Shown: positions 13,137 to 64,000 of the stretch, piece after piece
Layout: each line of letters begins with the position of its first letter
How positions within the stretch are numbered: position 1 is the stretch's first letter
NCBI GenBank assembly: GCA_015178975.1
Contig: WHVD01000056.1
Location: forward strand, 186,001-250,000
From: Hysterangium stoloniferum
Lineage: Eukaryota > Basidiomycota > Agaricomycetes > Hysterangiales > Hysterangiaceae
Length of the DNA: 64,000 nucleotides
Direction: 5' to 3'
Notes under the pieces: generated by a model
The model's database searches: none
What the model was told of the DNA's origin: nothing
Seen by the model: only the letters and a program-made list of their open reading frames with translations
Program-made: the position numbers and the translations under genes

Positions 13137-14567
13137 ATGACATACCCTTCCCAACAGCATATTCTTGACCCCTCAAATGAAATGGTACCGCTCATTGGTT
13201 TATCTGACCATAATGCTAAACAGATTGCCAACAGAGGCGTGCTGAACATTCATCCCAATGCCGTCGATATTGGTACGCCGATGACACACATTCGCTCCCA
13301 CTCAATCTGACGTGCTGCTATGCTTATGCAGTCCCCAACCGCGACAGGAACACCCTCACCCCCAATAGTACCGGCCCTATTCTCGATACCTTCAAGAGCC
13401 TGCCGTTTGTACGAAGCGTGGCTCACTGGACGTCTTCCCACCAATCTACTGGTCCTCACCCCGGAATGTTCAATGACCTCCTTCAAGGCTTGATGAATAA
13501 CTACAGCACGACGCATGAAGGTACGTCCTGTGATTGCAACATATTATAACTTCCTGAGCTGAGGGATATGCCTATGCATCAGACAATCTTTCCATCCCTC
13601 TGCCTGGACCTATCGCAAATGAGGATAGCTCGGGAAATCACTCAATGTCTCCGATCCTAGGTACGCGACTACTCAAGTACGGTTTCACTGTTACTGAGGT
13701 ATAATTGGTAGGAATCAGCTCTCACAACAATGCGATGGACGATTACACCGAACTCGGACATGCCAATTCTTCCATTGCAGGTCATAGATGATTAATATTT
13801 GAGTCTTTGTTTTCATGTACTCACCGCGTTATATTAAATAGTTCCTGCTGTATCTACGGGGGGTCTTTCCGAACTACAAGGTCAGTCGCATGTTTTGTCA
13901 AACATTGTGTAATACCTAAGTAACGTCACGGTCTGTCTTGTTCTTTAGATTATAGCACCGTTGAACTCCCCTCTCCCTCATACTCTCTGCCACATACCCA
14001 ATACAGCGCAACTGTAGTACGTCCCCCAATTCCTCCATGGACCCTAAACGCTCAAGGTCCTCATCTTAGGGGGCCGCAAGTAAAGCTGCTATTCCTGTTT
14101 CAACCCCCTCTCCAGGGTCCCCCGGAAATGGAGGCCCTCCCATGGAGAGTCACACCATTGTTCCCATTCCCGATAGTTGTTCTTCCAAAGAGTATCATGA
14201 GCTGTATTTGGGGAACAACTTGTGCTCCTGTAGGCTAAGTCCCAAGAGTCGCCCAAGCAAAGTCGAGAAAGGATTCATGTGTATCGAATGGTAGCTTCAT
14301 CCAGCTATAAATTTGTCACATATTAATGTCCAGTAGCCGCGTACCATTCACGACCCGTAAGAACGGGATGCGACATGCTAGAAATGCCAAGAAGATTCAC
14401 CAGTGTCCTATATGGTGAGTTCAAAACTCGTTTTCATGTCAGATATTCAAATAATCAAACACATCTAAAATTATAGCCACGAATATTTTGCACGTATCGA
14501 CTACCGCAACTCACACAAGAAATTTTGTAGTGGCAAGAAAGGTCAAGGATTTTCTCGGGGCCTGTAA
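13137..14567 (+). CDS. TZF-1: intact nine-exon gene with Cys/His zinc-finger-like C-terminus
   Basis: I do not recognise this family. Nine exons (13137-13272, 13332-13520, 13583-13660, 13712-13780, 13842-13880, 13949-14016, 14070-14290, 14334-14414, 14477-14567) join through eight GT-AG introns of 43-68 bp into one 323-residue frame. The N-terminal two thirds are Ser/Pro/Asn-rich and probably disordered. The C-terminus has C245-x-C247, C264-x2-C267, H281 and H289. These are followed by C291-x2-C294-x12-H307-x3-C311, which fits a C2HC zinc finger and ends in a Lys-rich tail. A nucleic-acid or protein-binding role is inferred only from these motifs. No signal peptide or membrane segment is seen. 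It is the copy nearest SKN7. The start is the ATG conserved across copies. Transcription is untested; a young gene-shaped repeat is the alternative. Confidence 0.75.
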
Positions 14568-15458
14568 ATCATTCAAGACGGCGAATAAATGGATTGATGT
14601 AATGCTACTGACTGTTATTTGTCAATAAAATTTTACCTGAAGCTAGGAAACGCATACACCATAATTTTAAAATTAAGAGAGGCTAAAACTGCACTCATTA
14701 GAGCTAATTTGAGTCTGCAGGTGACGAGAAACCTCCGTTATTGATACCAAAGTAGAATGACATTTTGATCATTGTAATCGTATTGAATATTACGTGCACA
14801 AAATTACGATGGGATTTAAACTAATAATCCCTTGTGTGGAATCCCTTGTGTGGTCAAGAAGATCTATCATGAAGTATTCGTGTAAGAGGGTTCGCATGGC
14901 AGACACTTTCTCAAGGATAGGTGTAGTCTCGTACAAACATCCCAAAACAGCTAGAGACCGGTGTTGGATATCGGTAAAAGAGATTAAAAAATAATCATGC
15001 AAATTAGGGCTGATCAAGGATCGAGAGAGGTAGCGAGAAACTCAAGGTAGGTAGGGATAGGTTTGATTTCTTTTTAATTACGAGTGTTTTTTATGATCCC
15101 TCCACTTGCTGCTGTGCTTGATTAGCAGACATATATAAGTAGCCTAGAGTCCATGTATCTAGCCATTCGTTTGCCTTACGGCCAAACAGACAAACGGAAT
15201 CTTACTGCTCTCTGTTCTCACGAGCTTAATTCTAACACTAATGCCGATGAAAAAATACAAATTGGAAGAGTAAAAGAACTTACTAATAATGATAGAATAT
15301 ACAAAAGAGATTTGTATAACGCCGCAAGTAGTATGGAGTTTAAGGCAAAAACTAATAATAGTAGCACAGAAGCTCTCAAAATTTCGGAAGACGCTCGTGC
15401 CCCACCAGCTCTCGGCATGGGTGGGGAAATCCGATATTCTCTGTTGTGATGATGTGGG
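14568..15458 (+). other. TZF 3' flank, SKN7-flank copy without exon tail, coding-like relic
   Basis: The first 160 bp are the 3' flank seen behind other TZF copies, with AATAAAATTTTACC near 14625 as a possible poly(A) region. It is joined at about 14738 directly to SKN7 3' flank (homologous to 4321 onward), which runs to about 15000. A deletion must have removed the exon tail here. The part 15230-15390 shares a coding-like segment with 48280-48400 and 62150-62280. Open frames on both strands here are otherwise unassigned. Confidence 0.6.
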
Positions 15459-15715
15459 TGTTGTAAAAGAAAGCATAGCGATTGAACTACCGCTGAGTAC
15501 AACAGCCACTTGATCTATTTTTAGATTCCCATTGTGCCCCTTATTCTAAGTGGCATATTAACTGTGAATTTATGTGTCTTTTGTTACACCTATTTAGATA
15601 GAACAATGGACACAAAGTAGTATAAAGTAGACAGGAAGCATGCACTATAGAAGATGTTTATCCAGATATTGTCTTAGGAACTTGTACCCTGTGCACATAG
15701 CCTACTTTTACAATA
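15459..15715 (+). mobile_element. Solo LTR of a copia family related to the second element
   Basis: It is 257 bp with the same start (TGTTGTAA) and end (TTTTACAATA) as the LTRs of the element at 41240-46589, and patchy homology between. It is flanked by the perfect target duplication GTGGG (15454-15458 and 15716-15720). Many differences from those LTRs indicate an older insertion. Confidence 0.88.
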
Positions 15716-16229
15716 GTGGGGACATCAACACCTCAATTTTATTCTCACGCAAATAATTCTACTTTTGTCCCTCTCGCCAAAACGGGTATTTTTGCAAGAG
15801 GACAAGAATTCTTGATTTTTTCACAGTCAACCCTTTGCACTTAGTTGGTGGCCTCTGCTGAGTGTTGAGACCTAAGGTCTAAAATATTTACTACTACACA
15901 ATAATGCTCAAGGGCAGTGGATAGGCTGACCCAGCACCCGTTGCGGAAAAGACGACACAGACGGAACTGATTGTAATGGATAGTACAGGGTCCTTATTCA
16001 GGTATTGCAGCAAGCTCCTCGCAGTTGTGCCATTTCGATGTTGACGGATTCAGTTATATTTTGACAGGCTCCAGTTAGGCGTCATTTAATGGATTGTTGC
16101 ATTAATGCCGCTAGTTAAGGTTACTAACCACTAAGGATGGCTTTCAAGATTCAACCATCGCCAGTAGCCAGTCCTAAACAAATATAATAAAATAACAAGA
16201 TACCATGAAACTTTCAAAACCATCGTACT
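15716..16229 (+). other. TZF upstream spacer module and 5' leader
   Basis: It contains the recurring spacer words GTATTTTTGCAAGAGGA and CACTTAGTTGGTGGCCTCTG, then the leader with GCCAGTAGCCAGTCC at about 16160. The same order precedes most other TZF copies, so this is part of the duplicated unit. No gene is seen. Confidence 0.6.
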
Positions 16230-17758
16230 ATGACATACCCTTCTCAACAGCATATTCCTCTCCCCTCAAATGACATAGGGTCACTCATTGGTTCATCTGA
16301 GCATAATGAACAGATTACCAATGGAGGCAGGCTCAACATTCACCCCAATATCGCTGATATTGGCTATGCTTATGCAGCCCCCAACCGCGACAGGAACACT
16401 CTCACCCGCAACAGTACTAACCCTATTCTTGATACAGTCTCCTATGAGAGGCCGCTCTTTGTAGGAAGCGTGGCCAACAGAACGTCTTCCCAAGACACTT
16501 CCCACCAGCCTTCTAGTCCTCAGTCCGGAACGTTCAATGACTTCCTTCAAGGCATGGTGAATGACGATAGCATATTGCACGAAGGTGCGTCCTATGATTG
16601 CAATTTATCATAACTTCCTGAACTGAGGAATATGCCTAAGCATCAGACAATCTTTCCATCCCTCTACCTGGACTTATCGCAAATGAGTACAGCTCGAGAG
16701 ATTATTCAATGTGTCCGATATCAAGTACGCAGCTACTCAAATACAGTTTTACTGTTATTGAGGTATAATCGGTAGGGACTGACTCTTACAACGATACGAT
16801 GGACGATTACACCGAACTCGAACATGCCAATTCTTCCGTTGCAGGTGATATATAATCATTATTTCGAGTCTCTGTTTTCATGTACTCACCACGTTATATT
16901 AAGTAGTCCCTCCTGCATAGACTACGGAGAATCTTTTCGATCTACAAGGCATCATAGGTCAGTCATATGTTTTGTCAAACATTGTGTAATACCTAAGTAA
17001 CGTCACGGTTTGTCTTTTTCTTTAGATTCTAGGGCCGTTGAATCTACAGAGAGTATTCCCGATCCACAAGGTCAGTCACATATTTTGTCAAACATTGTGT
17101 AATACCTAAGTAACGTCACGCTTGTCTTGTTCTTTAAATTATTATCGCACCGTTGAACTCCCCTCTCCCTCATACTCTCTGCCAGATATCCAAGACAGCG
17201 CAACTGTAGTACGTCCCCCAATTCCTTCACGGACTCTAAACGCTCAAGGTCCGCATCTTAGGCGGCCGCAAGTAAAGCTGCTATTCCTGTGTCAACCCCC
17301 TCTTCAGGGTCCCCCAGAAATGGAGGCCCTTCCATGCAGAATCACACCATTGCTCCCATTCCCGGTCATTGTCCTTCCAAAGAGTATCATGAATTGTATT
17401 TGGGGAACGAGCCGTGCTCCTGTGGGCTAAGTCCCAAGAGTCGCCCAAGCAAAGTCGAGAAAGGATTCATGTGTATCCAATGGTAGGTTCATCCGGCTAT
17501 AAATTTGTCACATTGATATTATGTAGCGGTGTAGCATTCACGACCCGTAAGAACGGGACCCGACACGCTAGAAATGCCAAGAAGATTCACGAGTGTCCTA
17601 CATGGTGAGTTCCAAAACTCAGTTTCATGTCAGATAATCAAATAATCAAACACATCTAAAATTATAGCCATAAATCTTTTGCGCGTATCGACTACCGCAA
17701 CTCACACAAGAAATTTTGTAGTGGCAAGAAAGGTCAAGGATTTTCTCGCGGCGTGTAA
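16230..17758 (+). pseudogene. TZF-2: full-length copy with splice and frame damage and a duplicated mini-exon
   Basis: Exons 1 and 2 are fused (16230-16584) because most of intron 1 is missing. The last 15 bases of the old intron (GCTATGCTTATGCAG) are read as codons. Exons 3 (16647-16724) and 4 (16776-16844) are open. Exon 5 carries an in-frame TAG after CCTCCTGCA. A duplicated intron-5/mini-exon block follows, and the usual acceptor before exon 6 reads TTTAAATTATT, lacking AG. Exons 7-9 are open to the stop at 17758. It probably does not give the standard product, unless the extra acceptor CCTGCATAG at 16920 is used. Confidence 0.65.
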
Positions 17759-19076
17759 ATTATTCAGACGGCGAATCAATAGATAGACGCATTGTTACTA
17801 ACTGTTAAGTCAATAAAATTGTACCTGAAACTAGGAAACAGACACCATAATTTTAAAATTTAGAGTGATTAGAACTGCGCTACTTTGAGGCGCTCCAGTA
17901 TTAGTTGAACTCACACTGGTACTCTTGACGTTTTCTTCAAATTTCTGCAGGTGGCGAAAAACGCCCGGCATCTGCAAAAGAATACCGAGCACAGTATCAG
18001 GGAAAAAACATGTGTTTTGAGAATAATCTCTCCAAACAAAATGTTTTTTCATAAAGTGATTCCTGGCAGCTCAAGCGAATATGTTGCACGTTCTTATAAG
18101 TTAAATATACCGTGACAGATGTCAAACTGAGCGTGGGATATGTGATATGTTGGAATGTATACATCCACGAACACTCGGGTATAGACACCGGACACCACCG
18201 CCATGATGGTTCTGATCGAAGATCTGGTGGATTCTTTGCAGGTCCCCGATACCCTCGGGCGTAAAGGTACCTATTTGGATTGATTATCCTTTGCTTCATT
18301 CATCTAGCAATGACTCATCGAAGATCCAAAAGTTGAGAGCTAGCCCTACATTCTTGGAGCCATGGAAATCTTGAATGTATGACATAATGGTGCAGATGTT
18401 TAGAACGCATCAACCAGGGGCGATATTGAGGTAGTCTTTGAATCTGGCGGTGGTGGCGATGAGTTTGAGTACAATCAAACTTTACAACATGGAAGAAGAA
18501 GCTCGTGCCATGAGTGTTATCGATTAATAGAGTGGCATCATAGCCGCCCGTGTTTGTATGTGGCGAAATTAACTCCGGAAATTTATCTCTCACCACTTTT
18601 AAAAATAAACGTCGTCAAGAGGATTAAAATTCTTGATTTTTCTACAGCACAGTTGGTGACCTTTTGCCTGATAGATAACTATTATTTCGAGTCTTTGTTT
18701 TCATGTACTCACCGCGTTGTATTGAATAATCCCTGCTGCATCTGCGGTCTTCCTGATCTACAAGGTCAGTGACATGTTTTGCCAAACATTGTGTATATTT
18801 TTGACGTAAACCTAGAACCCATGTGTTTTGAGGTGCTAAAATCAAATATAGTTGTATTTTGACAATTTTCCAACACAAAATTAATGAGGGAGCTCCTTAT
18901 TTTGAAAAAAAAAGATATGTCGCAGAAGTTGGACATAGTGGACATACTGTAATGCCGGAAGATGGAATGTACTGGGCGTCTATTGAACCTAGCAAAGAAA
19001 CCCACCGCCAGTAGCCAGTCTTAAACAAATATAATGAAACACCAAGATACCATGAAACTTTCAGAACCATCGTACT
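17759..19076 (+). other. Spacer: TZF 3' flank, recurring spacer module, A-tailed repeat, next leader
   Basis: The TZF 3' flank runs to about 18090. The module beginning CCATGATGGTTCTGATCG (18200-18540) recurs near 29.9, 34.2 and 54.7 kb, and inverted near 21.4 and 47.1 kb. At 18790-18912 is a short copy, ending in an A-run, of a repeat whose longer form is at 63.5-63.8 kb on the other strand. The next TZF leader is at about 19008. The SKN7 tail is absent from this unit. No gene is recognised. Confidence 0.5.
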
Positions 19077-20593
19077 ATGGCATACCCTCCCCAACAGCAG
19101 CCCCCCCCCCCCTTCAAATGACACAGGGCCACTCATTGGTTCATCTGAGCATAATGAACAGATTACCAATGGAGGCGTGCTCAACATTCACCCCAATGTC
19201 GCCGATATTGACTATACTTATGCAGCCCCCAGCCGCGACAGGAACACTCTCACCCGCAGTAGTACTGGCCCTGTTCTCGACACAGTCTCCTATGAGAGGC
19301 CGCTCTTTGCAGGAAGCGTGGCCAACAGGGCGTCTTCCCACAATACTTCCCACCAACCTTCTGGTCTTCAGCCCGGAACGTTCAATGACCTCCCTCAAGG
19401 CATGGTGAATAACGATGGCATATTGCACGAAGGTGCGTCCTATGATTGCAACATGTCATAACTTCCTGAACTGAGGAATATGCCTAAGCATCAGACAATC
19501 TTTCCATCCCTCTACCTGGACTTATCGCAAATGAGTACAGCTCGAGAGATTATTCAATGTATCCGATATCAAGTATGCAGCTACTCAAATACGGTTTTAC
19601 TGTTATTGAGGTATAATCGGTAGGGACTGACTCTTACAACAATACGATGGACGATTATACAGAACTCGAACATGCCAATTCTTCCGTTGCAGGTGATAGA
19701 TAATCATTATTTCGAGTCTCTATTTTCATGTACTCACCGCGTTATATTAAATAGGATTTACGGAGAATCTTTTCGATCTACAAAGCACCATAGGTTAGTC
19801 ATATGTTTTGTCAAACATTGTGTAATACCTAAGTAACGTCACGGTTTGTCTTGTTCTTTAGATTCTAGCACCGTTGAATCTATAGAGAGTCTTCCCGATC
19901 CACAAGGTCAGTCACATATTTTGTCAAACATTGTGTAATACCTAAGTAATGTCACGCTTGTCTTTTTCTTTAGATTATTATAGCACCGTTGAACTCCCCC
20001 CTCCCTCATATTCTCTGCCAGATATCCAAGACAGCGCAACTGTAGTACGTCCTCCAATCCCTTCACGGATCCTAAACGCTCAAGGTCCTCATCTTAGGCG
20101 ACCGCAAGTAAAGCTGCTGTCCCTGTGTCAACCCCCTCTGCAAAGTCCCCCAGAAATGGAGGTCCTCCCATGCAGAATCACACCATTACTCGCATTCCCG
20201 ATCGTTGTCGTTCCAAAGAGTATCATGAGCTGTATTTGGGGAACAATTTGTGCTCCTGTGGGCTAAGTCCCAAGAGTCGCCCAAGCAAAGTTGAGAAAGG
20301 ATTCATGTGTATCGAATGGTAGGTTTATCCAGCTATAAATATGGCACATATTGATGTCCAGTAGCGGTGTAGCATTCACGACTCGTAAGAACGGGGACCG
20401 ACACGCTAGAAATGCCAAGATTCACAAGTGTCCTACATGGTGAGTACCAAAACTCAGTTTCATGTCAGATAATCAAATAATCAAACACATCTAAAATTAT
20501 AGCCACAAATTTTTTGCGCGTGTCGACTACCGCAACTCACACAAGAGAATTTGTAGTGGCAAGAAAGGTCAAGGATTTTCTCGGGGCATGTAA
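19077..20593 (+). pseudogene. TZF-3: full-length copy with a C-run frameshift
   Basis: Same subfamily as TZF-2 and TZF-4 (exons 1 and 2 fused, wording TVSYERPLF). A run of about twelve C residues near 19100 shifts the frame after the first codons, so the conserved frame is only open downstream, from about 19177. It also carries the duplicated mini-exon block seen in TZF-2 (about 19745-19980). The exon 5 region is altered (ATAGGATTTACGG). Exons 7-9 remain open, ending at 20593. It is probably inactive in its standard form. Confidence 0.65.
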
Positions 20594-23113: not shown

Positions 23114-24503
23114 ATGACATACCCTTCCCAACAGCATATTCCTCTTCCCTCAAATGACATAGGGCCACGCATTGGTTTATCTGAGCATAATGAACTGATT
23201 AACAACGGAGGCATGCTCAACATTCACCCCAATATCGCTGATATTGGCTATGCTTATGCAGCCCCCAACCGCGACAGGAACACTCTCACCCGCAATAGTA
23301 CTGGCCCTATTCTCGACACAGTCTCCTATGAGAGGCCGCTCTTTGCAGGAAGCGTGGCCAACAGGGCGTCTTCCCACAATACTTCCCACCAACCTTCTGG
23401 TCTTCAGCCCAGAACGTTCAATGACCTCCCTCAAGGCATGGTGAATAACGATGGCATATTGCACGAAGGTGCATCCTATGATTGCAACATGTCATAACTT
23501 CCTGAACTGAGGGATATGCCTAAGCATCAGACAATCTTTCCATTCCTCTACTTGGACTTATCGCAAATGAGTACAGCTCGGGAGATTATTCAATGTCTCC
23601 GATATCAAGTACGCAGCTACTCAAATATGGTTTTACTGTTATTGAGGTATAATCGGTAGGGACTGACTCTTACACCGAACTCGGACATGCCAATTCTTCC
23701 GTTGCAGGTGATAGATAATCATTATTTCGAGTCCCTGTTTTCATGTACTCACCGCGTTATATTAAATAGTCCCTCCTGCATCTACGGAGAATCTTTTCGA
23801 TCTACAAGGCATCATAGGTCAGTCATATGTTTTGTCAAACATTGTGTAATACCTAAGTAACGTCACGGTTTGTCTTGTTCTTTAGATTATTATAGCACCG
23901 TTGACCTCCCCCCTCCCTCATACTCTCTGCCAGATATCCAAGACAGCGCAACTGTAGTACGTCCCCAATTCCTCCACGAACCCTAAACGCTCAAGGTCCT
24001 CATCTTAGGCGGCCGCAAGTAAAGCTGCTATTCCTGTATCAACCCCCTGTGCAGGGTCCTCCAGAAATGGAGGCCCTTCCATGCAGAATCACACCATTAC
24101 TCGCATTCCCAGTCGTTGTCCTTCCAAAGAGTATCATGAGTTGTCTTTGGGGAACAAGCCGTGCTCCTGCGGGCTGAGTCGCCCAAGCAAAGTCGAGAAA
24201 GGATTCATGTGTACCGAATGGTAGGTTTATCCACCTATAAATTTGTCACATATTCATGTCCAGTAGTGGTGTAGCATTCACGACCCGTAAGAACGGGATG
24301 CGACATGCTAGAAATGCCAAGAAGATTCACGAGTGTCCTACATGGTGAGTTCCAAAACTCGGTTTCATCTATTGGCAGATAATCAAATGATCAAACACAT
24401 ATAAAATTATAGCCACGAATATTTTGCGCGTATCGACTACCGCAACTCACACAAGAAATTTTGTAGTGGCAAGAGAGGTCAAGGATTTTCTCGGGGCGTG
24501 TAA
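23114..24503 (+). CDS. TZF-4: intact eight-exon copy of the intron-1-less subfamily
   Basis: Exons 23114-23468, 23531-23608, 23660-23707, 23770-23817, 23886-23956, 24009-24220, 24264-24344 and 24413-24503 join with GT-AG introns to 327 residues. Exons 1 and 2 are fused through exonised intron remains (codons GYAYAA). Compared with TZF-1, exon 4 is 21 bp shorter, exon 5 is 9 bp longer (GGCATCATA), exon 6 is 3 bp longer and exon 7 is 9 bp shorter; all are multiples of three. The C-terminal CPTC-x12-H-x3-C finger and the CxC and CxxC words are kept. The function is unknown, as for TZF-1. The leader and upstream ORF are also present. Intact frames despite many changes argue for selection until recently. 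Confidence 0.72.
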
Positions 24504-26920: not shown

Positions 26921-27440
26921 ATTTTTTGATGACTGGCTCTCCGTTATGATGGATGTGAGGAAATCAACCCGCCTTATTTACTACATAAGGCTCATGTGCA
27001 GCGGATAGGCCGACGCAGCACTCGTCGCGGAACAGAAGGCGCACAGACGAATTGACGGTAATAGAGAATAGTACAGGTCCTTATTTTGGTTTCGCCGGCA
27101 ACAAGCTTTTTGGAGTTTGGCGCCTGATCCCCGACTCTCATTCTTAGCGAATCACTGTGTTTGTGGTCTCCTACACATTGAACCGAGCTGCCCAGAGTAC
27201 GGCTAGCCTCATCAGGGCATACGACCGGCTAGGAAACATGCTCTCCATTGACCGTCCTGGATTTCCGAATGATAATAATAGCTTCAAACGGAAGTATCAG
27301 AGGGAATAGACTGCTCTTGTCCCGGGGGGGGCGAGTATAATAAGGGATGCCCACATGGCTGATTTACATCACCATCCTCCTCAATTTGGTTAGCATCTTA
27401 AGTCGTACGTGCCTCGCAAGTCGTAGTATCACATACTCAA
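26921..27440 (+). other. Spacer with the second copy of the 194 bp block
   Basis: Spacer words (GGATGTGAGGAAATCAACCC, GCAGCGGATAGGCCGAC) are followed by the second copy of the 194 bp block (27178-27371). About 70 bp of unassigned DNA then precede the truncated TZF-5. Confidence 0.5.
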
Positions 27441-28544
27441 GACCTCGTTCAAGGCATGATGAATAACTACAGCACGGCGCATGAAGGTACGTCCTATGAT
27501 TGCAACATATTATAACCTCCTGAGCTGACGAATATGCCTAAGAATCAGACAATCTTTCCATCTCTCTGCCTGAACATATCGCAAATGAGTACAACTCGGG
27601 AAATTATTCAATGCCTCCAATATTAGGTACACGGCTACTCAAATACGGTTTCGTCGTTACTGAGGTAGAATTGGTAGGAATCGGCTCTCACAACAATGCG
27701 ATGGACGATGACACCGAACTCGGACATGCCAATTCTTCCATTACGGGTGATAGATTATTATTATTTCGAGTCTTTGTTTTCATGTATTCACCGCGTTATA
27801 TTAAATAGTCCCTCCTGCATCGACCGAGGGTCTTCCCGATCTACAAGGCATCATAGGTCAGTCACATATTTTGTCAATCATTGTTTAATACCTAGGTAAC
27901 GTCACGGTTTGTCTTGTTCTTCAGATCATAGCACTGTTGAACTCCCCCCTTCCTCATACTCTCTTCCAGATATCCAAGACAACGCAACTGTAGTACGTCC
28001 TCCATTCCTCCACAGACCCCAAACGCTCAAGGTTCTCACCTTAGGCGGCCGCAAGTAAAGCTACTATCTCTGTGTCAACCTTCTCTGCAAGGTCCCCCAG
28101 AAATGGAGGCCTTCCCATGCAGAATCACACCATTGTTCGCATCCCCGATCGTTGTCCTTCCCAAGAGTATCATGAGTTGTATTTGGGGAATAATTTGTGC
28201 TCCTGCGGGCTAAGTCCCAAGAGTCGCCGAAGCAAAGTCGAGAAAGCATTCATGTGTATCGAATGGTAGGCTCATCGAGCTATAAATTTGTCACATATTG
28301 ATGTCCAGTAGCCGTGTACCATTCACGACGCGTAAGAACGGGATCCGACATGCTAGAAGTGCCAAGATTCACGAGTGTCCTACATGGTGAGTTCCAAAAG
28401 TCGGTTTCATCTATTGTCAGATAATCAAATAACCAAACACATATAATATTATAGCCACAAATCTTTTGCGCGTGTCGACTACCGCAACTCACACAAGAAA
28501 TTTTGTAGTGGCAAGAAAGGTCAAGGATTTTCTCGGGGCGTGTA
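27441..28544 (+). pseudogene. TZF-5: 5'-truncated copy
   Basis: Homology begins in the last third of exon 2 (GACCTCGTTCAAGGCATGATG) with no exon 1 or leader upstream. The remaining exons 3-9 follow in order, with recognisable GT-AG introns and an open C-terminal finger (CPTC...HKKFC), ending at 28544. Lacking a start and promoter, it is classed as a pseudogene. Confidence 0.75.
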
Positions 28545-29066
28545 AATTATTCAAGACAGCGAATAAATGGATTGATGTAATGCTACTAATTGTTAAGTCA
28601 ATAAAATTTTACCTGAAGCTAGGAAACAGACACCATAATTTTGGAATTAAGGGATAATTTTAAAATTAAGAGAGACTGGAACTGCACTCATTAGCGCTAC
28701 TTTCAGGCGCTCCAGTATTTCCAGTTGAGCTCACATTGGTACTCTTGACGTTTTCTTCAAAATTTTGCAGGTGGCGAAAGACGCCGGCATCTGCAAGAGA
28801 ATACCGGGAACAGTATCAGAAAATAAACGTGTTTTGAGAATAATCTCTCCAAACAAAAAGTTTTTCCATAAAAGTTGTTCCTAGCAGCTCAAGCTAATAT
28901 GTCCTTGCACATTTCTTAGAAGTTAAATATAACACGAAGATCCCCCTTTCAAGCATATATGTAATGCATTCGTGACATCGCATATATGCCGTAGTTGTGG
29001 ACCGTAGTGGACCTAAACGCACTATGGTATGTGCTTCGGCTGCACTGCGTCGTAGAGTATGTCGTT
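28545..29066 (+). other. TZF 3' flank leading into an SKN7-tail copy
   Basis: Conserved TZF 3' flank: AATAAAATTTTACC, GAGGCGCTCC-like words, GACGTTTTCTTCAA, and AAATAAACGTG near 28820. After about 28960 there is short unique DNA, then CGTCGTAGAGTATGTCGTTTC, a word also found in spacers near 34.5, 51.2 and 55.0 kb, fused to the SKN7 tail. Confidence 0.55.
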
Positions 29067-41152: not shown

Positions 41153-41239
41153 CCAGTGCTATTGCGGGTGAGATTGTTTGTTCCTGTCGTGGTTGGAGGC
41201 TGCATAGCAGCACGTCGGATTGAGTGCGAGGGAATGTGC

Positions 41240-44837: not shown

Positions 44838-46329
44838 CATCCCTAGCAGAAAATAGAACTTGGGAACTGGTTGAGTTGCCACAGGGCCGTACCACTGTGC
44901 GAAATAAGTGGGTTTTCATGACAAAACGGAACACACAGGGTGAAATCGCATGATAAAAAGCACGACTTGTTGCAAAGGGATTCACACAAATGGAAGGAGT
45001 CGACTATGAAGAAACATTTGCCCCAGTCGCCCGCTTAGACTCCCTGCGACTTTTGTTATCATTGGCGGCAGTATATAACTGGGACATACATCAAATTGAC
45101 ATCAAATCTGCTTACCTAAATGGAAATCTGAATGAGGAAATCTACATGGATCAACCACAAGGGTTCACGATCCCCAGGAAGGAGCATTTGGTCTGCCGAC
45201 TGATGAAAGCTATCTATGGTCTGAAACAAGCGGGGCGGCAATGGCATGAACATTTACAGAACACCCTGGCAAGCATGGGCTGCATTAAATTGATCTCTGG
45301 TGATGTCTCAATCTTTTTCAAAGATCACGAAGAAGGGGGACAATTCACAATAATCCTAGTATATGTAGACGACATGGCAATCTTCGGGACCTTGAAAAAC
45401 ATACAAGATGTCAAAAGCTTTATTGGTTCCAAGTACAAATACACCGATTTAGGGGAAATCAAACACTTTCTAGGACTCCACATCACTCGCAATCGCTCTA
45501 AGAAGACCATAACAATAGATCAAACTCATTATATTCAACGAATAATTGATCGTTTTAATATGAAGAACTGTCGCCCTGCATACACCCCCTTCCCTGCAGG
45601 GACTACTCTAATAGCAAATACAGAACCCAACTCAGATCACACAGTTAGGACAAGCTATCAACAACTCGTCGGACCACTCATGTATGCCATGCTGGGAACA
45701 AGGCTGGATATATGCTATGCAGTCAATCGACTCTCACAATACGGTTCCAATCCCACATCCGCTCACTTAAATGCTGCTCAGCATACCCTACGGTATCTCG
45801 CAACAACACAACAATGGAAATTGACTTACGGAAGGAATAATTCCACAGAACTGATTGGATACAGCGATTCGGATTGGGCGGGAGACAAGGACAATTGCCG
45901 ATCAACAACAGGATATACTTTCGTTCTCTCAGGGGAGCAATAGCATGGGCCACACAAAGACAACGAACTGTTGCATTATCTTCAACCGAAGCAGAATACA
46001 TGGCCCTCACAGAATGCTCCAAACACGCACAATGGATCATATCTTTGCTTCAACAACTCTTCTTTGAAATCGACCTTCCTATTAACCTTTTCAGTGATTC
46101 ACTTGGAGCTCGATCAATTGCCTCAAACAATGTTTATCACAAGAGAACAAAACATATCGATATCAAATATCATTACATCCGTGAAAGGATCACTGATGGA
46201 ACGATCAGTGTAAACGAAGTAAACACCAAGGACAATTTAGCCGATATCTTCACAAAGTCCTTACCACGAGAACAACATAACATTCTAACAATGCGGTTAG
46301 GATTAAATGATAATTCAACTGAGGGGGAG

Positions 46330-46589
46330 TGTTGTAATAAAAGGGACAATACCAGTTGAATTATCCCAGAAGAACAATAGCGACTTGAAACAACAAAGGG
46401 AACAACTACTGATCGAACATATTATTAGATTCCATTGTGCCACTCATAGAACAATAGGACTCAGTAGTATAAAATAACTACAGAATGTACAGTAGTAAAA
46501 CAACAGAGTCAGTCTACTCGCACTCCTCTACTCGCACTCAGGAGTTTCCTGAGTGGCACTGCGTCTACAAGTTGCAACCTTTTACAATA
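46330..46589 (+). repeat. 3' LTR of the second copia element (260 bp)
   Basis: Two substitutions from the 5' LTR. It is preceded by the purine run GAGGGGGAG, a likely polypurine tract, and followed by the TGTGC target duplication. Confidence 0.95.
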
Positions 46590-46744
46590 TGTGCGTTATC
46601 AACATACCAATATCGACGACATTGGAATGAATTTTGGGCACGCCTCCGTTGGCAATCTGTTTAGCATTATGCTCAGATAAACCAATGAGTGGCCCTATTT
46701 CATTTAAGGGGAGAAGAATATGCTGTTGGGAAGGGTATGTCGTA

Positions 46745-49320: not shown

Positions 49321-50730
49321 ATGACATACCCTTCCCAAAAGCATATTCTTCACCCCTCAAATGAAATGGTGCCGCTCATTGGTTTATCTGAGCATAATGC
49401 TAAAGAGATTGCCAGTGGAGGGGTGCTCAATATGCATCCCAATGTCGTCGATATTGGTACGCCGATGACACACATTTGCTCCCACTGAATCTGACGTGCT
49501 GCTATGCTTATACAGTCTCCAATCTCGACAGGAACACTCTCACCCACAATAGTACTGGTCCTATTCTCGATACCTTTGAGAGGCCGCCCTTTGTAGGAAG
49601 CGTGGCTCACTGGACGTTTTCCCACCAGTCTTCTGGTCCTCACCTCGGAACATTCAATGACCTCCCTCAAGGCATGATGAATAACTACAGCACGTTGCAT
49701 GAAGGTACGTCCTATGATTGCAACATATCACAACTTCCTGAGCTGAGGGATATGCCTAAGCATCAGACAATCTTTCCATCCCTCAGCCTGGATTTATCGC
49801 AAATGAGTACAACTCGGGAAATTATTCAATGTCTCCGATAGGTACGCGGCTACTCAAATACGGTTTCACTGTTACTGAGGTATAATTGGTAGGAATCGGC
49901 TCTCACAACAATGCGATGGATAATTACACCGAACTCGGACATGCCGATTCTTCCGTTGCAGGTGGTAGATTATTATTATTTCGAGTCTTTGTTTTCATGT
50001 ACTCACCGCGGTATATTAAATAGTTCCTGCTGTATCTACGGGGGGTCTTTCCGAACTACAAGGTCAGTCGCATGTTTTGTCAAACATTGTGTAATACCTA
50101 AGTAACGTCACGGTCTGTCTTGTTCTTTAGATTATAGCACCGTTGAACTCCCCTCTCCCTCATACTCTCTGCCACATACCCGAGACAGCGCAACTGTTGT
50201 ACGTCCCCCAATTCCTCCACGGACCCTAAACGCTCACGGCCCTCATCTTAGGTGGTCCCGAGTACAGCTGCTATCCCTGGGTCAACCCCCTCTGCAAGGT
50301 CCCCCAGAAATGGAGACCCTCCCATGCAGAATCACACCATTGCTCCCATTCCCGCTCATTGTCCTTCCCAAGAGTATCATGAGCTGTATTTGGGGAACAA
50401 GTTGTGCTCCTGCGGGCTAAGTCCCAAGAGTCGCCCAAGCAAAGTCAAGAAAGGATTCATGTGTGTCGAATGGTAGGTTCATCCAGCTATAAATTTGTCA
50501 CATATTGATGTCCAGTAGCCGTAGACCATTCACGACCTATAAGAACGGGATCCGACACGCTAGAAATGTCAAGAAGATTCACGAGTGTCCTACATGGTGA
50601 GTGCCAAAACTCGGTTTCATGTCGGATAGTCAAATAATCAAACACATAAATAAATTATAGCCATAAATATTTTGCGCGTATCGACTACCGCAACTCACAC
50701 AAGAAAATTTGTAGTGGCAAGAAAGGTTAA
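49321..50730 (+). CDS. TZF-9: intact nine-exon copy
   Basis: Exons 49321-49456, 49516-49704, 49767-49841, 49893-49961, 50024-50062, 50131-50198, 50252-50472, 50516-50596 and 50661-50730 join by GT-AG introns to 315 residues. Exon 3 is 3 bp shorter than in TZF-1, and an earlier stop (GGTTAA) removes the last few residues after the finger. The C-terminus keeps C-x-C, C-x2-C, the His pair and CPTC-x12-H-x3-C. The conserved leader is directly upstream. It lies 2.6 kb from the inverted TZF-8. The function is unknown. Confidence 0.74.
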
Positions 50731-51526
50731 GGATTTTCTCGAGGCGTGTAAATCATTCAAGACAGCGAATGGATGGATTGATGTAATGCTACTGGCTGTT
50801 ATTTGTCAATAAAGTTTTACCTGAAGCTAGGAAACAGTTGCACCATAAATTTTAAAATTTAGAGAGACTAGAAGTGCACTTAGGGAAGCGCTCCAATATT
50901 GCCAGTTGAACGTTGAACTCATTGGTACTCTTGACGTTTTCTTCAAATTTCTGCAGATGGCAAGAAACGCCCGGCATCTGCAAGAGAACACTGGGGACAA
51001 TATCAGAAAAAAAACATGTGTTTTGACAATGTCTCTCCAATCAAAAATATAACAGGGAGATCCCCTTGCGATCGCCTAAAGGGATGGAAGTTCCGATCGC
51101 TTTTCGGTTGAAGTCACTGGCGGCTGTAGGAAAGTGTGGCGCAGGGTATCGCTATATTCCAACACTATTTGGGGTATGTCTCTTACCTGCATTGCGTCGC
51201 AGAGTATGTCGTTCCTCTTTGAAATGTTTGCAGTGCAACAGGTAATGTGCCACGATTTTGCATGTTAGGAACCACTAAACCAACGTTGGCTTAGTGGTTC
51301 CCAACATAAACTCTGACCCGAAGGTCAGCAGTGACTCTCCTACGACCGTTCAAGGGGGGTAGCCAACGCTTGGGTGGGCCCAACTAGATATTAAGTAACT
51401 CTTATGATCCCTCTTAATGCCAAATACAAGTTATTTTGTCAACATTTGACCTTAAGAGTAGCCTCTATCTGCAAAAGAGATTCAAAAATAATCTTGCACC
51501 GGCCAGGAATTCAGGATATGATAGCG
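50731..51526 (+). other. TZF 3' flank and spacer with a perfect hairpin
   Basis: The 3' flank to about 51060 contains GACGTTTTCTTCAAATTTCT. It then changes to spacer (GCATTGCGTCGCAGAGTATG at 51190, TTTGACCTTAAGAGTAGCC near 51448). The SKN7 tail is missing from this unit. No gene. Confidence 0.55.
51264..51305. repeat. 42 bp hairpin in spacer
   Basis: GTTAGGAACCACTAA pairs with TTAGTGGTTCCCAAC with one mismatch. The loop holds the palindrome CCAACGTTGG. Partial versions occur near 34.57, 47.94, 55.08 and 61.80 kb. Confidence 0.75.
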
Positions 51527-51975: not shown

Positions 51976-52962
51976 CAACAATCTTTCCATTTCTCTGCCT
52001 GGACTCATCGCAAATGAGTACAGCTCGAGAAATTATTCCCGATATTAGGTACGCAGCTACTCGAATAAGGTTTCACTATTACTGAGGTATAATTGGTAGG
52101 AATCGGCTCTCACAACAATGCGATGGACGATGACACCAAACTTGGACATGCCAATTCTTCCATTGCAGGTGATAGATTATTATTATTTCGAGTCTTTGTT
52201 TTCATGTACTCACAGCGTTATATTAATTAGTTCCTGCTGCATCTACGAGGTCTTCCCAATCTACAAGGCATCATAGGTCAGTCACAGGTTTTGTCAAACA
52301 TTGTGTAATGCCTAAGTAACGTCACGGTTTGTCTTGTTCTTTATATTATAGCGCTGTTGAACACCTCCCTCATACTCTCTGCCAGATACTCAAGACAGCG
52401 CAACTGGTGGACGCCCCCCAATTCCTCACGGACCATAAACGCTCAAGGTCCTCATCTTAGGCAGCCGCAAGTGAAACTGCTGTCGCTGTGTTAACCTCCT
52501 CTGCAAGGTCCCTCCAGAAATGGAGGCCCTACCATGCAGAATCACAACATTGCTCACATTCTCGGTCGTTGTCCCTCCAAAGAGTATCATGAGCTCTATT
52601 TGGGGAACAAGTTGTGCTCCTGCGGGCTAAGTCCCAAGAGTCACCCAAGCAAAGTCGAGAATGCATCCATGTGTATCGGATGGTAGGTTCATCCAGCTAT
52701 AAATTTGTCACATATTGATGTCCAGTGGCGGTGTACCATTCACGACCCGTAAGAACGGGATCCGACACGCTAGCAATGCCGAGAGGATTCACGAGTATCC
52801 TACATGGTGAGTTCCAAAACTCGGTTTCATGTCAGATAATCAAATAATCAAACATATAAATAAAATTATAGCCACGACTTTTTTTTCTGCGTATCGACTA
52901 CCGCAACTCGCACAAGAAAGATTGTAGTCAAGAAAGGTCAAGGATTTTCTCGGGGCGTGTAA
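51976..52962 (+). pseudogene. TZF-10: 5'-truncated copy behind a minisatellite
   Basis: Begins at exon 3 (ACAATCTTTCCATTTC); exons 1-2 and the leader are replaced by the minisatellite. Exon 3 lacks part of its end, exon 6 is shortened (GAACACCTCCCTC), and exon 9 has a T-run insertion and a lost piece (TTGTAGTCAAGAAAGG). Ends at 52962. Inactive. Confidence 0.75.
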
Positions 52963-56036: not shown

Positions 56037-56081
56037 TTGACGTACCTTTCCCAACAGCATATTCTTCACCCCTACAATAAA

Positions 56082-57450
56082 ATGGTGGCGGTCATTGAGC
56101 GTAATGCTAAACATATTGCCAGCGGAGGCGTGCTCAACATTCATACCAATGTCGTCGATATTGGTACGCCGATGACACACATTCGCTCCCACTGAATCTG
56201 ACGTGCTGCTATGCTTATGTAGTCTCCAACCACGACAGGAACACTCTCACCGGCAATAGTACCAGTCCTATTCTCGATACCTTTGAGAGGCCGCCCTTTG
56301 TAGGAAGTGTGGCTCACTGGATGTCCTCCCACCAGTCTTCTGGTCCTCACCCCGGAACATTCAATGACCTCCCTCAAGGCATGATGAATAACTACAGCAC
56401 GTTGCATGAAGGTACATCCTATGATTGCAACATATCATAACTTCCTGAGCTGAGGGATATGCCTAAGCATCAGACAATCTTTCCATCTCTCAGCCTGGAT
56501 TTATCGCAAATGAGTACAACTCGGGAAATTATTCAATGTCTCCGATAGGTACGCGGCTACTCAAATACGGTTTCACTGTTACTGAGGTATAATTGGTAGG
56601 AATCAGCTCTCACAACAATGCAATGGACGATTACACTGAACTCGGACATGCCAATTCTGCCTTTGCAGGTGATAGATTATTATTATTTCGAGTCTTTGTT
56701 TTCATGTACTCACCGCGGTATATTAAATAGTTCCTGCTGCATCTACGGGGGGTCTTCCCGAACTACAAGGTCAGTCGCATGTTTTGTCAAACATTGTGTA
56801 ATACCTCAGTAACGTCACGGTTTGTCTTGTTCTTTAGATCATGGCACCGTTGAACTCCCCCTTTCCTCATACTCTCTGCCAGATGTCCAAGGCAGCGCAA
56901 CTGTAGTACGTCCTCCAATTCCTCTACGGACCATAAACGCTAAAGGTCCTCATCTTAGGCCACCGCAAGTAAAGCTGCTATCTCTGTGTCAACCCCCTCT
57001 GCGAGGTCCCCCAGAAATGGAGGTCCTCCCATGCAGAATCATACCATTGTTCCCATTCTCGATCGTTGTCCTTATCATGAGCTGTATTTGGGGATCACAT
57101 TGTGCTCCTGCAAACTAAGTCTCAAGAGTCGCCCAAGCAAAGTCGAGAAAGCATTCATGTGTATCGAATGGTAGGTGCATCCAGCTATAAATTTGTCACA
57201 TATTGATGTCCAGTAGCGGCGTACCATTCACGACCCGTAAGAACGGGAACCGACATGCTAGAAATGCCAAGATTCACGAGTGTTCTACATGGTGAGTTCC
57301 AAAACTCGGTTTTATCTATTGTCAGATAATCAAATAACCAAACACATATAAAATTCTAGCCACGAATTTTTTGCGCGTGTCGACTACCGCAACTCACACG
57401 AGAAAATTTGTAGTGGCAAGAAAGGTTTAGGATTTTCTCGGGGCGTGTAA
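56082..57450 (+). CDS. TZF-11: open nine-exon copy lacking the usual start codon
   Basis: At the conserved start position (56037) the codon is TTG. From the next in-frame ATG (56082) all exons are open: 56082-56163, 56223-56411, 56474-56548, 56600-56668, 56731-56769, 56838-56905, 56959-57170, 57214-57291 and 57360-57450, giving 300 residues. Exon 7 is 9 bp shorter and exon 8 is 3 bp shorter than in TZF-1. In the finger region one Cys of the CPTC word is changed to Ser (TGTTCTACATGC), but its spacing partners remain. This is either a working gene with a shorter N-terminus or a very recent loss. The leader is altered around the start. Confidence 0.5.
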
Positions 57451-59403: not shown

Positions 59404-60618
59404 ATGACGTACCCTTCCCAACAGCATATTCTTCTCCCTTCAAATGAAATAAGGCGACTCGTTGGTTTATCTGAACATAATTAACAGATTACCAGCGGAG
59501 GCGAGCTCAAAATTCATCCCAAGGTCACCGATATTGGTACGCCGATGACACACATTCGCTCCCACTGAATCTGATGTCCTGCTATCCTTATACAGTTCTC
59601 CAACCGCGACCAGAACACTCTCACCCGCAATAGTACTGGCCCTATTCTTGATACAGTCTCCTCTGAGAGGCCGCTCTTTGTAAAAAGCGTGGCTCACAGG
59701 ACGTCTTCCCAAAATACTTTCCACCAGCCTTCTGGTCGTCACCCTGGAACGTTCAATGACCTCCCTCAAGGCATGGTGAATGACTACATCACATTGCATG
59801 AAGGTACGTCATGTGATTGCAACATATCATGACTTCCTGAGCTGAGGGATATGTGGCAGGTGATAGATTATTATTATTTCGAGTCTTTGTTTTCATGTAC
59901 TCACCGCGTTATATTAAATAGTTTCTGCTGCATCTACGGGGGGTCTTCCCGATCTACAAGGCATCATAGGTCAGTCATATGTTTTGTCAAAGATGGTGTA
60001 ATACCTAAGTAACGTCATGGTTTGTCTTGTTCTTTAGATTATAGCACCGTTGAACTCCCCTCTCCCTCATACTGTCTGCCAGATACCCAAGACAGCGCAA
60101 CTGTAGTACGTCCCCCAATTCCTCCACGGACCCTAAACGCTCAAGGTCCTCATCTTAGGCGGCCACAAGTAAAGTTTCTATCCCTGTGTCAACCCCCTCT
60201 GCGAGGTCCCCCAGAAATGAAGGCCCTCTCATGCAGAATCACACCATTGCTCCCACTCGCGGTTGTTGTCTTCCCAAGAGTATCATGAGTTGTATTTGGG
60301 AAACAATTTGTGCCCGCGGGCTAAGTCTCAAGAGCCGCCCAAGCAAAGTCGAGAAAGAATTCATGTATATCGAATGGTAGGTTTATTCAGCTATAAATTT
60401 GTCACATATTGATGTCCAGTAGCCGTGTACCATTCACGACCCGTAAGAATGGGATCCGACATGCTAGAAATGCCAAGATGATTCACGAGTGTCCTACATG
60501 GTGAGTTCCAAAACTTGGTTTCATCTATTGCCAGATAATCAAATAATCAAACACATGTAAAATTATAGCCACGAAACTTTTGCGCGTATCCACCACCGCA
60601 ACTCACACAAGAAATTTT
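59404..60618 (+). pseudogene. TZF-12: copy with early stop and missing exons
   Basis: Conserved ATG and start of exon 1, then a stop (CATAATTAACAG, where relatives have CATAATGAACAG or CATAATGCTAAACAG). Intron 1 is present. A deletion joins intron 2 to the end of exon 4 (near 59851), removing exon 3. Exons 5-8 follow. Exon 9 breaks off after TTTTGTAGTGGC and joins 3'-flank DNA. Inactive. Confidence 0.75.
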
Positions 60619-61020
60619 GTAGTGGCAGAAGACGGCGAATAAATGGATTGATATAATGCCACTAACTGTTAAGTCAATAAAATTTTACCTGAAGCTAGGA
60701 AACAGATACACCATAATTTCAAAATTTAGAGAGCTTAAACTGTATTTATTAAGGCTAATTTGAGGCGCTCCAGTATTGCCAGTTGAACGTTGAACTCACA
60801 CTGGTACTATTATTGACGTTTTCTTCAAATTTCTGCAGGTGGCAAGAAACACCCGACATCTGCAATAGAATACCGGGAAAAGAATCAGAAAAAAAACGTG
60901 TGTTTTGAGAATAATCTCTCCACTCAAGGTGGGGTTAAAGTCGCATGAGGTCCCCCTTTATATTGGCTGAAATAAGAGGAGGACGTTGGAGGCGACCTCA
61001 CTCATCTCTATGCACAGCCA
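60619..61020 (+). other. TZF 3' flank and junction module
   Basis: 3' flank words (AATAAAATTTTACCTGAAGC, GACGTTTTCTTCAAATTTCT), then a junction module shortened on its left (GGTGGGGTTAAAGTCGCATG at 60927) leading to CTCTATGCACAGCCACCCC. No gene. Confidence 0.6.
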
Positions 61021-62986: not shown

Positions 62987-63480
62987 AAGAGTAATGATGA
63001 CTGGGTGTCTAGCTAATGTTATTACTAACTAACGAAGACTTTTAAGATTCAACCCATTGCCAGTAGAAACAGATGCACCATAATTTTAAAATTTAGAGAG
63101 ACTGGAACTGCACTCATTAGGGTTAATTTGAAGTGCTCTGCGTTGAACTCACACTGATACTCTTGACGTTTTCTTCAAATTTCTGCAGGTGGCGAGAAAC
63201 CCCTGGCATCTGCAAGAGAATACTGGGAACAGAATCAGAAAAAAAAACATATGTTTGGAGAATAATCTCTCTAATCAAAATGTTTTTTCATAAAAGTAAT
63301 TCCTAGCTCAAGCTAATAAGTCCTTGCACATTTATTAGAAGTTAAATATAACATGGAGATCCCCTTGCGATCGCTGAAAGGGCCGGAAGTTCCGGGCTCT
63401 TTGCCTGATGGAGGGTGGTCCAGCGGCTATAGGAAAGTGTGGCGCAGGGCGTCGCACTGCCGCGCAAGTGTCATGACATG
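62987..63480 (+). other. Scar of a deleted TZF gene
   Basis: The TZF leader is present up to CCCATTGCCAGTAG (63068) and joins directly to AAACAGATGCACCATAATTT, which is 3' flank. The whole gene between is missing. The 3' flank then runs normally to about 63390 (GACGTTTTCTTCAAATTTCTGCAGG near 63165). Confidence 0.75.
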
Positions 63481-63790
63481 TTTTTTTTTTCCAAAATAAG
63501 TAGTCCTCATTATGTAATTTTGGGTTGGAAATTCGTCAGGGTTTAACTATATTTTCCTTTAGGACCTCAAAACACAAGAAATACTACATAGAGTATCCAT
63601 TTTCCTGCTGAAACATACCTTGTGTACCACTTGAAATTGGCACATCACTAGTTTTAGCCCTTAATTGAGTAATATCCATACCCAAATAAAGTTATTAGAG
63701 TGTTCAATAACAAAATATGACATTTGAAACACATGGGTTCTAGGTTTATATCAAAAACATGTATGTTGCCACTTAATTAGAAAGGCAACT
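63481..63790 (-). repeat. Longer copy of the A-tailed repeat seen at 18790-18912
   Basis: On the minus strand it reads AAACCTAGAACCCATGTGTTT ... CCAACCCAAAATTACATAATG ... and ends in an A-run (T-run at 63481-63492 on the plus strand). The 18.8 kb copy has the same two ends but lacks the middle. A poly(A) end suggests a retroposon; its class is unknown. Confidence 0.5.
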
Positions 63791-63839
63791 GCAAGCTTAT
63801 GTATGTAATGCACTGGTGACAATATGCCCGAGAAAATTC

Positions 63840-64000
63840 TTAACCTTTCTTGCCACTACAATTTTTCCCGTGTAAGTTGCGGTAGTCGACACGCGCAAAA
63901 AATTTGTGGCTGTAATTTTACATGTGTTTGGTTATTTGATTATCTGACACTAGATGAAACCGAGTTTAGGAACTCACCATGTAGAACACTCGTGAATCTT
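63840..64000 (-). pseudogene. TZF-13: inverted copy running off the window (exons 9 and 8)
   Basis: The minus strand shows exon 9 at 63909-63840 (70 bp, ending at the early GGTTAA stop as in TZF-9), an intron with GT-AG ends, and the end of exon 8 (63978 to the window edge). The visible part is open: the finger reads TCHKFFARVDYRNLHGKNC, with one Cys of the CPTC word changed to Ser, as in TZF-11. Whether the rest is whole cannot be seen; the type reflects missing evidence, not proven damage. Confidence 0.6.

What the first reader, a model, noticed from the sequence alone, without database searches (positions are those of the whole stretch)
13137..64000. Undescribed tandem family of intron-rich zinc-finger-like genes (TZF), four or five copies still open
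Thirteen loci plus one deletion scar carry the same nine-exon gene. TZF-1, -4, -6 and -9 each splice into a single frame of 315-327 codons with all introns GT-AG, and TZF-11 lacks only the start codon. The conserved end C-x-C...C-x2-C...H...H...C-x2-C-x12-H-x3-C fits a zinc-binding tail. I recognise no known family. Such an intron-rich gene amplified locally is not the usual form of a fungal transposon gene.
Basis: partly seen in the sequence, partly recalled or inferred. Interest (0 to 1): 0.88.

Follow-up and report, generated by a model that had tools for sequence, protein, structure and literature searches.

The report
Tandem array of fungal zinc-finger genes
A stretch of probably fungal DNA carries about a dozen side-by-side copies of one intron-rich gene whose tail looks like a pair of classical DNA-binding zinc fingers; a few copies still look usable and the rest are decaying, which is an ordinary kind of gene-family growth seen here in unusual detail.

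Summary
Twelve substantial copies, one more running off the right edge and two scars lie in 12.9-64 kb. Copies 1, 4, 6 and 9 splice through GT-AG introns into single frames of 323, 327, 326 and 315 codons with stop; copy 11 lacks only its ATG. 'No known family' does not hold: the tail matches classical C2H2 zinc fingers, as a C-x2-C-x12-H finger with uncertain fourth ligand plus a C2HC finger. The N-terminal 244 residues matched nothing in Pfam. Six units carry the 3' end of a neighbouring Skn7-like gene, so the array probably grew by segmental tandem duplication beside it. Whole-gene omega is about 1, yet exon indels favour multiples of three, splice sites are kept, and zinc ligands, helix contacts and core Phe are conserved: no amino-acid change in 90 codon cells of the five open copies. 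I read this as birth and death of a DNA-binding regulator, 3 to 5 copies probably usable. A positive-selection signal did not survive the control with introns plus flanks. A 2025 survey already reports intron-rich, tandem and near-neutral C2H2 genes in Basidiomycota.

The parts
13137..14567 (+). T1 (TZF-1): intact nine-exon gene, 322 aa; exons 13137-13272, 13332-13520, 13583-13660, 13712-13780, 13842-13880, 13949-14016, 14070-14290, 14337-14414, 14477-14567
   Evidence: all eight introns GT-AG, no stop
16230..17758 (+). T2: one in-frame TAG in exon 5; about 113 bp of exon 5-intron 5-exon 6 duplicated; intron 1 lacks its 5' part
18671..18795 (+). Scar: 125-nt internal fragment of a copy
19077..20593 (+). 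T3: +1 shift in an exon-1 C run, rest open; same internal duplication as T2
23114..24503 (+). T4 (TZF-4): intact, 326 aa, eight exons (intron 1 reduced to 15 in-frame nt)
27437..28545 (+). T5: 5' truncated; remaining part of exon 2 to exon 9 open
30681..32118 (+). T6 (TZF-6): intact, 325 aa, nine exons
35499..36600 (+). T7: 8-nt exon-2 deletion, intron-2 donor and acceptor changed, cut off in exon 7
39717..46817 (-). T8: inverted copy, split by a Copia element (41240-46592) in intron 1; several further lesions
49321..50751 (+). T9 (TZF-9): open, 314 aa; TAA seven codons before the usual end
51978..52962 (+). T10: 5' truncated, several frameshifts and splice-site changes, first Cys of finger 2 changed
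56037..57450 (+). T11: nine exons open, 314 aa, start codon TTG
59404..60628 (+). T12: stop in exon 1, deletion over exons 3-4, frameshifts, first Cys of finger 1 changed, 3' deletion
63827..64000 (-). T13: end of a further copy (end of exon 8 to exon 9), runs off the window
63066..63131 (+). Scar: 3'-flank fragment of a copy
1937..4122 (+). Skn7-like gene (HSF DNA-binding domain plus response regulator domain), left neighbour and donor of the 3' tail in the units; outer exon limits not worked out
   Evidence: Pfam HSF_DNA-bind E 3.7e-20; Response_reg E 6.5e-5, below its cut-off; the name Skn7 is recalled from this domain pair
37026..37521 (+). Copy of the Skn7-like 3' end inside a unit (its 70-codon tail ORF still open, rest of the gene absent); five others, with stops or indels, near 29067, 33146, 53627, 61023 (+) and 39140-38655 (-)
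7958..12773 (-). Copia element between the Skn7-like gene and T1; LTRs differ at 3 of 272 columns
41240..46592 (+). Copia element inserted in T8; LTRs differ at 3 of 263 columns

Best explanation
This is a tandem segmental-duplication array of one C2H2-type zinc-finger gene, probably encoding a nuclear DNA-binding regulator. Shown: copies share a stretch just upstream of the ATG, up to nine exons and a 3' flank, mostly with AATAAA; six units also hold the 3' end of the neighbouring Skn7-like gene. Inferred: a duplication with one breakpoint inside the last exon of the Skn7-like gene copied [Skn7 tail + intergenic DNA + zinc-finger gene], and unequal crossing-over multiplied it. Shown: the tail resembles a two-finger C2H2/C2HC domain and follows a 244-residue part rich in Ser, Pro and Asn without Pfam match. 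Inferred: the tail binds DNA, and the N-terminal part is a loosely constrained regulatory or spacer region. Shown: frame, splice sites, zinc ligands and helix contact positions were kept better than the rest, while average amino-acid change is as fast as neutral. Inferred: birth and death, with T1, T4 and T6 (perhaps T9 and T11) usable and the others decaying.
For: Fingers: 2i13 E 4e-19 over five stretches, best single 1e-5; 1mey E 1.5e-9; zf-H2C2_2 E 2.8e-5 on the T2 tail. Gene structure. Constraint: exon indels in multiples of three 14 of 27 against 6 of 44 in introns and flanks, Fisher p 7e-4; splice dinucleotide letters changed 8 of 346 against 267 of 4655 other intron letters, p 0.0024, all eight in T7, T8 and T10; zinc ligands plus helix -1,2,3,6 positions changed in 6 of 172 cells against 61 of 350 other finger cells, p 1.2e-6; these 16 plus two core Phe: nonsynonymous to synonymous 6:11 against 443:130 in the N-terminal part, p 3e-4, and 0 of 90 cells changed in the five open copies. 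Unit: six Skn7 tails, five with stops or indels in the tail ORF. Flank homology of several pairs runs on beyond the gene on both sides.
Against: Mean omega over the 12 copies is 1.16, not below 1 (2dL against 1 = 2.44), also for open terminal branches (1.11) and the finger region (1.19), so average protein constraint is not shown. Exons differ more than introns (0.125 against 0.098). Finger 1 has no ligand at the usual x3-x5 place; its candidate is H-x7-H. Pfam cut-offs are not reached. T1 shares no homologous spacer upstream of about 13060 with the other units, which the duplication model must explain by loss. No expression data, no relatives found outside the window and no genome held. Cell counts treat copies as independent.
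Confidence: 0.76

Rival explanations
1. The whole array is a set of pseudogenes of a former zinc-finger gene; the open copies are open by chance because the amplification is young.
For: Omega about 1 in all branch classes. From stops alone each open copy had a 0.22-0.53 chance of staying open under neutrality on its terminal branch. Seven of 12 copies are broken or truncated.
Against: Multiples of three among exon indels, shared ones too (6 of 9 against 2 of 16, p 0.0099); splice sites kept over all copies; finger ligands and contacts kept. The chances for stops and splice sites together are 0.02, 0.22, 0.02, 0.07 and 0.06 for T1, T4, T6, T9 and T11 (products of the values; indels and start codon not counted). 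The constraint could still be past and now ended.
Confidence: 0.17
2. The gene is cargo or ORF of a mobile element (for example a DNA transposon or Helitron) that piled up locally.
For: Many copies, at least two of 13 inverted, in a region with transposons; six units carry a gene fragment (Skn7 tail), as capturing elements can. Weak inverted pairs do lie on either side of T6 (18 nt at 83%, 14 nt at 86%) and T9 (23 nt at 74%, 20 nt at 75%). T1 has sharp homology edges near 13060 and 14713.
Against: The T9 arms reach 17 of 23 (1 of 60 shuffles as good), but the six other copies tested have best matches of 13-15, within their shuffles, so they are not a family feature, and T11 has no flanking pair. 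Between several copies homology runs on past the gene, upstream by about 390 nt and downstream towards the Skn7 tail. No transposase, Rep/helicase or integrase match in T1 or T11; of the 10 ORFs scanned out of 35, four belong to Copia, two to the Skn7-like gene and four have no match. The captured tail is that of the array's own neighbour.
Confidence: 0.05
3. The family is under diversifying (positive) selection, as in an arms race.
For: Exons change faster than introns. Model M2a beats M1a by 2dL 55.8, with variable sites around invariant ligands. Introns alone, read as pseudo-codons, give only 1.3-5.5, though with 142-148 codons against 322.
Against: Introns plus flanks read as pseudo-codons give 2dL 25.0, 25.3 and 63.8 in the three frames, and exon frames +1 and +2 give 33.7 and 36.3, so the signal is not specific to coding sequence. 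DNA-contact positions hardly vary, against a race over binding specificity.
Confidence: 0.06

Closest known systems
C2H2 zinc-finger genes of Basidiomycota (survey PMC12295980; passages read)
   Same: Intron-rich (mean 6.2 per gene in saprotrophs), partly tandem (10 tandem genes in Schizophyllum commune, 23% in Volvariella volvacea), and some syntenic groups near neutral (Ka/Ks 0.73 for the small clusters, 0.85-0.89 for clusters 19-20).
   Different: The survey says tandem copies are a lower share than other kinds and that most clusters are under strong purifying selection. Here about 13 copies of one gene lie in one 51-kb block and most are decaying; the passages I read describe no such block and no Skn7 neighbour.
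Clustered C2H2 zinc-finger genes of mammals (PMC2443715; title and start of abstract in search listings only)
   Same: Expansion thought to be mainly by tandem duplication, in clusters, with species-specific duplication and loss.
   Different: By recall those proteins have long finger arrays and a KRAB or other effector domain; here two fingers, nearly constant contact positions and no Pfam effector domain.
Zinc-finger proteins 2i13 (Aart) and 1mey (consensus zinc finger), solved structures
   Same: The C-x2-C, Phe and first His positions of both fingers align.
   Different: The linker between the two fingers is two residues shorter, finger 1 lacks the usual second His, and finger 2 ends in Cys.

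Membership tests
C2H2 zinc finger (classical fold) | Finger 2: C-x2-C-x12-H-x3-5-H/C with Phe four residues after the second Cys | tested here: met
   C-x2-C-x12-H-x3-C and Phe297 in 9 of the 10 copies that span it; T10 lost the first Cys; T7 and T8 do not span it
C2H2 zinc finger (classical fold) | Finger 1: C-x2-C-x12-H-x3-5-H | tested here: inconclusive
   C-x2-C-x12-H is met if intron 7 uses its second acceptor (CAGTAG); T12 lost the first Cys; the fourth ligand is not at x3-x5, the candidate His is at x7 (x6 in T3, T5, T11)
C2H2 zinc finger (classical fold) | Significant sequence similarity to proven C2H2 domains | tested here: met
   T2 tail: 2i13 E 4e-19 (five stretches, best single 1e-5), 1mey E 1.5e-9, ZNF568 E 2.7e-7; only the T2 tail was searched
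C2H2 zinc finger (classical fold) | Pfam curated cut-off for zf-C2H2 or zf-H2C2_2 | tested here: not met
   24.6 of 40 bits (zf-H2C2_2) and 19.8 of 25.2 bits (zf-C2H2) for the T2 tail; lower for T1 and T11. I treat this as a curation threshold, not as a defining feature, and so call the pair divergent
C2H2 zinc finger (classical fold) | Zinc and DNA binding | not testable with these tools
DNA transposon / Helitron | Terminal repeats shared by the copies at the ends of the unit | tested here: not met
   Weak inverted pairs flank T6 and T9 but not T11; the T9 pair is not shared by the other six copies tested; homology runs past them
DNA transposon / Helitron | Transposase or Rep/helicase in the unit | tested here: not met
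   None in T1 or T11 nor in four unassigned ORFs between copies; 10 of 35 ORFs scanned
DNA transposon / Helitron | Dispersed copies in the genome | not testable with these tools
   no genome is held
Tandem birth-and-death gene family | Head-to-tail paralogues with intact and decayed members | tested here: met
   11 of 13 copies on the + strand; five open, seven broken or truncated among T1-T12

The most novel reading that the evidence does not exclude
A lineage-restricted DNA-binding family in which several neighbouring intact copies share one DNA target (constant contact residues) but carry freely changing N-terminal parts, so that copy number and N-terminal variety, not binding specificity, is what selection acts on; the tandem acceptor CAGTAG in intron 7, kept in nine of eleven copies, might switch finger 1 on and off by one residue.
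Probability: 0.1. Interest if true: 0.55.

Novelty: new member of a known kind. Interest (0 to 1): 0.3.

Why it matters
It is a clear single-locus record of how a zinc-finger regulator multiplies and dies in what is probably a basidiomycete: unit, neighbour fragment, decay and partial retention are all readable. It also shows that average omega of about 1 can hide a constrained finger core, and that site-model tests of positive selection need a non-coding control in such arrays.

Tried and rejected
Intron 6 as first placed did not work in most copies; I listed GT-AG alternatives (two-intron lists capped at 14 per copy in the print) and replaced it. Pairwise dN/dS (old intron 6) gave 0.84 pooled for all copies; the codon model with transition bias gave 1.16. 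Site models suggested positive selection; I do not uphold it after the control, in which introns plus flanks gave as large a signal although introns alone did not. A RIP-like cause was considered: singleton C-to-T and G-to-A changes showed no strong context bias (counts read by eye, not tested). A viral-contig search for relatives of the T2 tail found none. Paper searches gave one directly relevant paper (PMC12295980); none of the titles listed concerns this array, but they cover only the held library and capped lists. Plavaka-type transposon papers were sought; none of the ten listed of 590 held the word Plavaka.
Full report
What was checked. The window is 64 kb, 44% G+C, and no genome is held for it. 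It looks like basidiomycete DNA by inference only: short introns, an Skn7-like HSF plus response-regulator gene at 1.9-4.1 kb and two Copia elements.

The copies. Self-BLAST shows twelve substantial copies (T1-T12), a thirteenth cut by the right edge, and two scars. T8 is inverted and split by a Copia element whose LTRs differ at 3 of 263 columns, while the copies differ from each other on average by 0.125 per site in exons, 0.098 in introns and 0.158 in near flanks, so the array is probably older than that insertion.

Gene model. Eight introns of 46-68 nt interrupt T1: exons 13137-13272, 13332-13520, 13583-13660, 13712-13780, 13842-13880, 13949-14016, 14070-14290, 14337-14414, 14477-14567. 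T1, T4, T6 and T9 are single open frames of 322, 326, 325 and 314 residues; T11 is open but starts with TTG. T5 is open in all that is left of it, and T3 has one shift. T2, T3 and T4 lack the first 44 nt of intron 1; in T2 and T4 its last 15 nt read as codons in frame. Without an outgroup I cannot say whether this is loss or gain. The flanks carry a conserved stretch before the ATG, and AATAAA stands 51-57 nt after the stop in six of the seven copies looked at (not T11), so whole genes were copied, not cDNAs.

What the protein is. The tail of T2 (113 residues) matches classical zinc fingers: 2i13 E 4e-19, which sums five stretches of a many-fingered protein (best single stretch 1e-5), and 1mey E 1.5e-9; Pfam zf-H2C2_2 E 2.8e-5, below the curated cut-off; T1 and T11 score weaker. 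Finger 2 is C-x2-C-x12-H-x3-C. Finger 1 is C-x2-C-x12-H with a conserved His at x7 (x6 in three copies), which may be the fourth ligand or only the core residue before the next finger. The acceptor of intron 7 is a tandem CAGTAG in nine of eleven copies that have it (T2 keeps only TAG, T10 only CAG); the first AG would add one residue inside finger 1. The N-terminal 244 residues match nothing in Pfam; the weak hits listed for T1 and T11 (E 0.025 or more) all start at residue 243 or later. In T1 this part is 14% Ser, 11% Pro and 8% Asn.

How the array arose. Six copies of the 3' end of the Skn7-like gene lie in the units. Five have stops or indels in the 70-codon tail ORF; the one at 37.0 kb is still open there but lacks the rest of the gene. 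The full Skn7-like gene stands at the left edge of the array. The simplest inference is a duplication with a breakpoint in its last exon that took the neighbouring zinc-finger gene along, then unequal crossing-over. T1 does not fit fully: its homology to the other copies stops at about 13060 and 14713, and the spacer shared by other units is missing upstream of it, which I put down to later loss around the Copia insertion. Against a mobile element: weak inverted pairs flank T6 and T9, but the T9 pair is not shared by the six other copies tested and homology of several pairs runs on past the gene; T1 and T11 show no transposase-type match, and of 10 ORFs scanned out of 35 only the four Copia ORFs do.

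Is it alive? Against: omega over 12 copies and 322 codons is 1.16 and not different from 1 (2dL 2.44); terminal 1.10, internal 1.49; open terminal branches 1.11, broken 1.09. For: exon indels are multiples of three in 14 of 27 events against 6 of 44 in introns and flanks (p 7e-4; events over 60 nt and one mixed event dropped), and in shared events 6 of 9 against 2 of 16 (p 0.0099). Splice dinucleotide letters changed in 8 of 346 against 267 of 4655 (p 0.0024); the lost acceptor of the duplicated piece in T2 and intron 1 of T2-T4 were not among those counted. Ligand and contact positions changed in 6 of 172 cells against 61 of 350 (p 1.2e-6); with two core Phe added, nonsynonymous to synonymous is 6:11 against 443:130 (p 3e-4), and 0 of 90 cells changed in the five open copies. 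A control with the same amino acids in the N-terminal part gave 176 changes in 1162 cells against 3 in 119. The contact numbering (-1, 2, 3, 6) is recalled. Cells are copies, not independent events, though the tree is nearly a star. The open five were chosen for being open; the all-copy tests do not have that bias.

A signal that failed its control. M2a against M1a gave 2dL 55.8, but introns plus flanks read as codons gave 25.0-63.8; introns alone gave 1.3-5.5 on fewer codons. The control is thus mixed, and I make no claim of positive selection.

Place among known things. A 2025 survey of 1032 C2H2 genes in 30 Basidiomycota reports intron-rich genes, tandem copies and near-neutral groups, though it calls tandem copies the lower share (PMC12295980, passages). 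This array is a member of that kind, with many copies in one place. Verdict: real, mostly ordinary, well readable as a birth-and-death locus; interest 0.3.

Noticed in passing
window 13273-13331 against 16363-16377, 19211-19225, 23247-23261: Intron 1 is present (59 nt) in T1, T6, T7, T9 and T11 (60 nt in T12 and in the joined T8), but reduced to 15 nt in T2-T4: an intron presence/absence difference between close paralogues.
   Followed up: partly
window 16930-17165 and 19766-20001: About 113 bp spanning the end of exon 5, intron 5 and the start of exon 6 are duplicated in T2 and T3, making a possible extra exon; the second acceptor is lost in T2.
   Followed up: partly
window 14330-14340 and the matching place in other copies: Tandem acceptor CAGTAG at intron 7 inside finger 1; use of the first AG would make C-x2-C-x13-H.
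   Followed up: partly
window 51575-51996: A 29-nt minisatellite abuts the truncated 5' end of T10.
   Followed up: no
window 51262-51307: A 23-nt near-perfect palindrome (91% complementary, no loop) between T9 and T10.
   Followed up: no
window 50661-50751 and 63827-64000: T9 and T13 share an in-frame TAA at the same codon of exon 9, seven codons before the usual end.
   Followed up: partly
window 7958-12773 and 41240-46592: Two Copia elements with nearly identical LTRs (3 of 272 and 3 of 263 columns differ); short repeats flank both (GGAAA; ATGTGC), read by eye.
   Followed up: partly
window 22091-22616 and 32572-33101: A segment of about 530 nt outside the zinc-finger gene is 93% identical between two units, closer than nearly all zinc-finger copy pairs in the same listing (whole-gene pairs up to 91%).
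   Followed up: no
window 37026-37521: One of the six Skn7-like tail copies keeps the 70-codon end of the ORF open with few changes, the other five do not.
   Followed up: partly
window 49237-49259 and 50788-50810: A 23-nt inverted pair (17 of 23) flanks T9 only among seven copies tested; 1 of 60 shuffles as good.
   Followed up: partly
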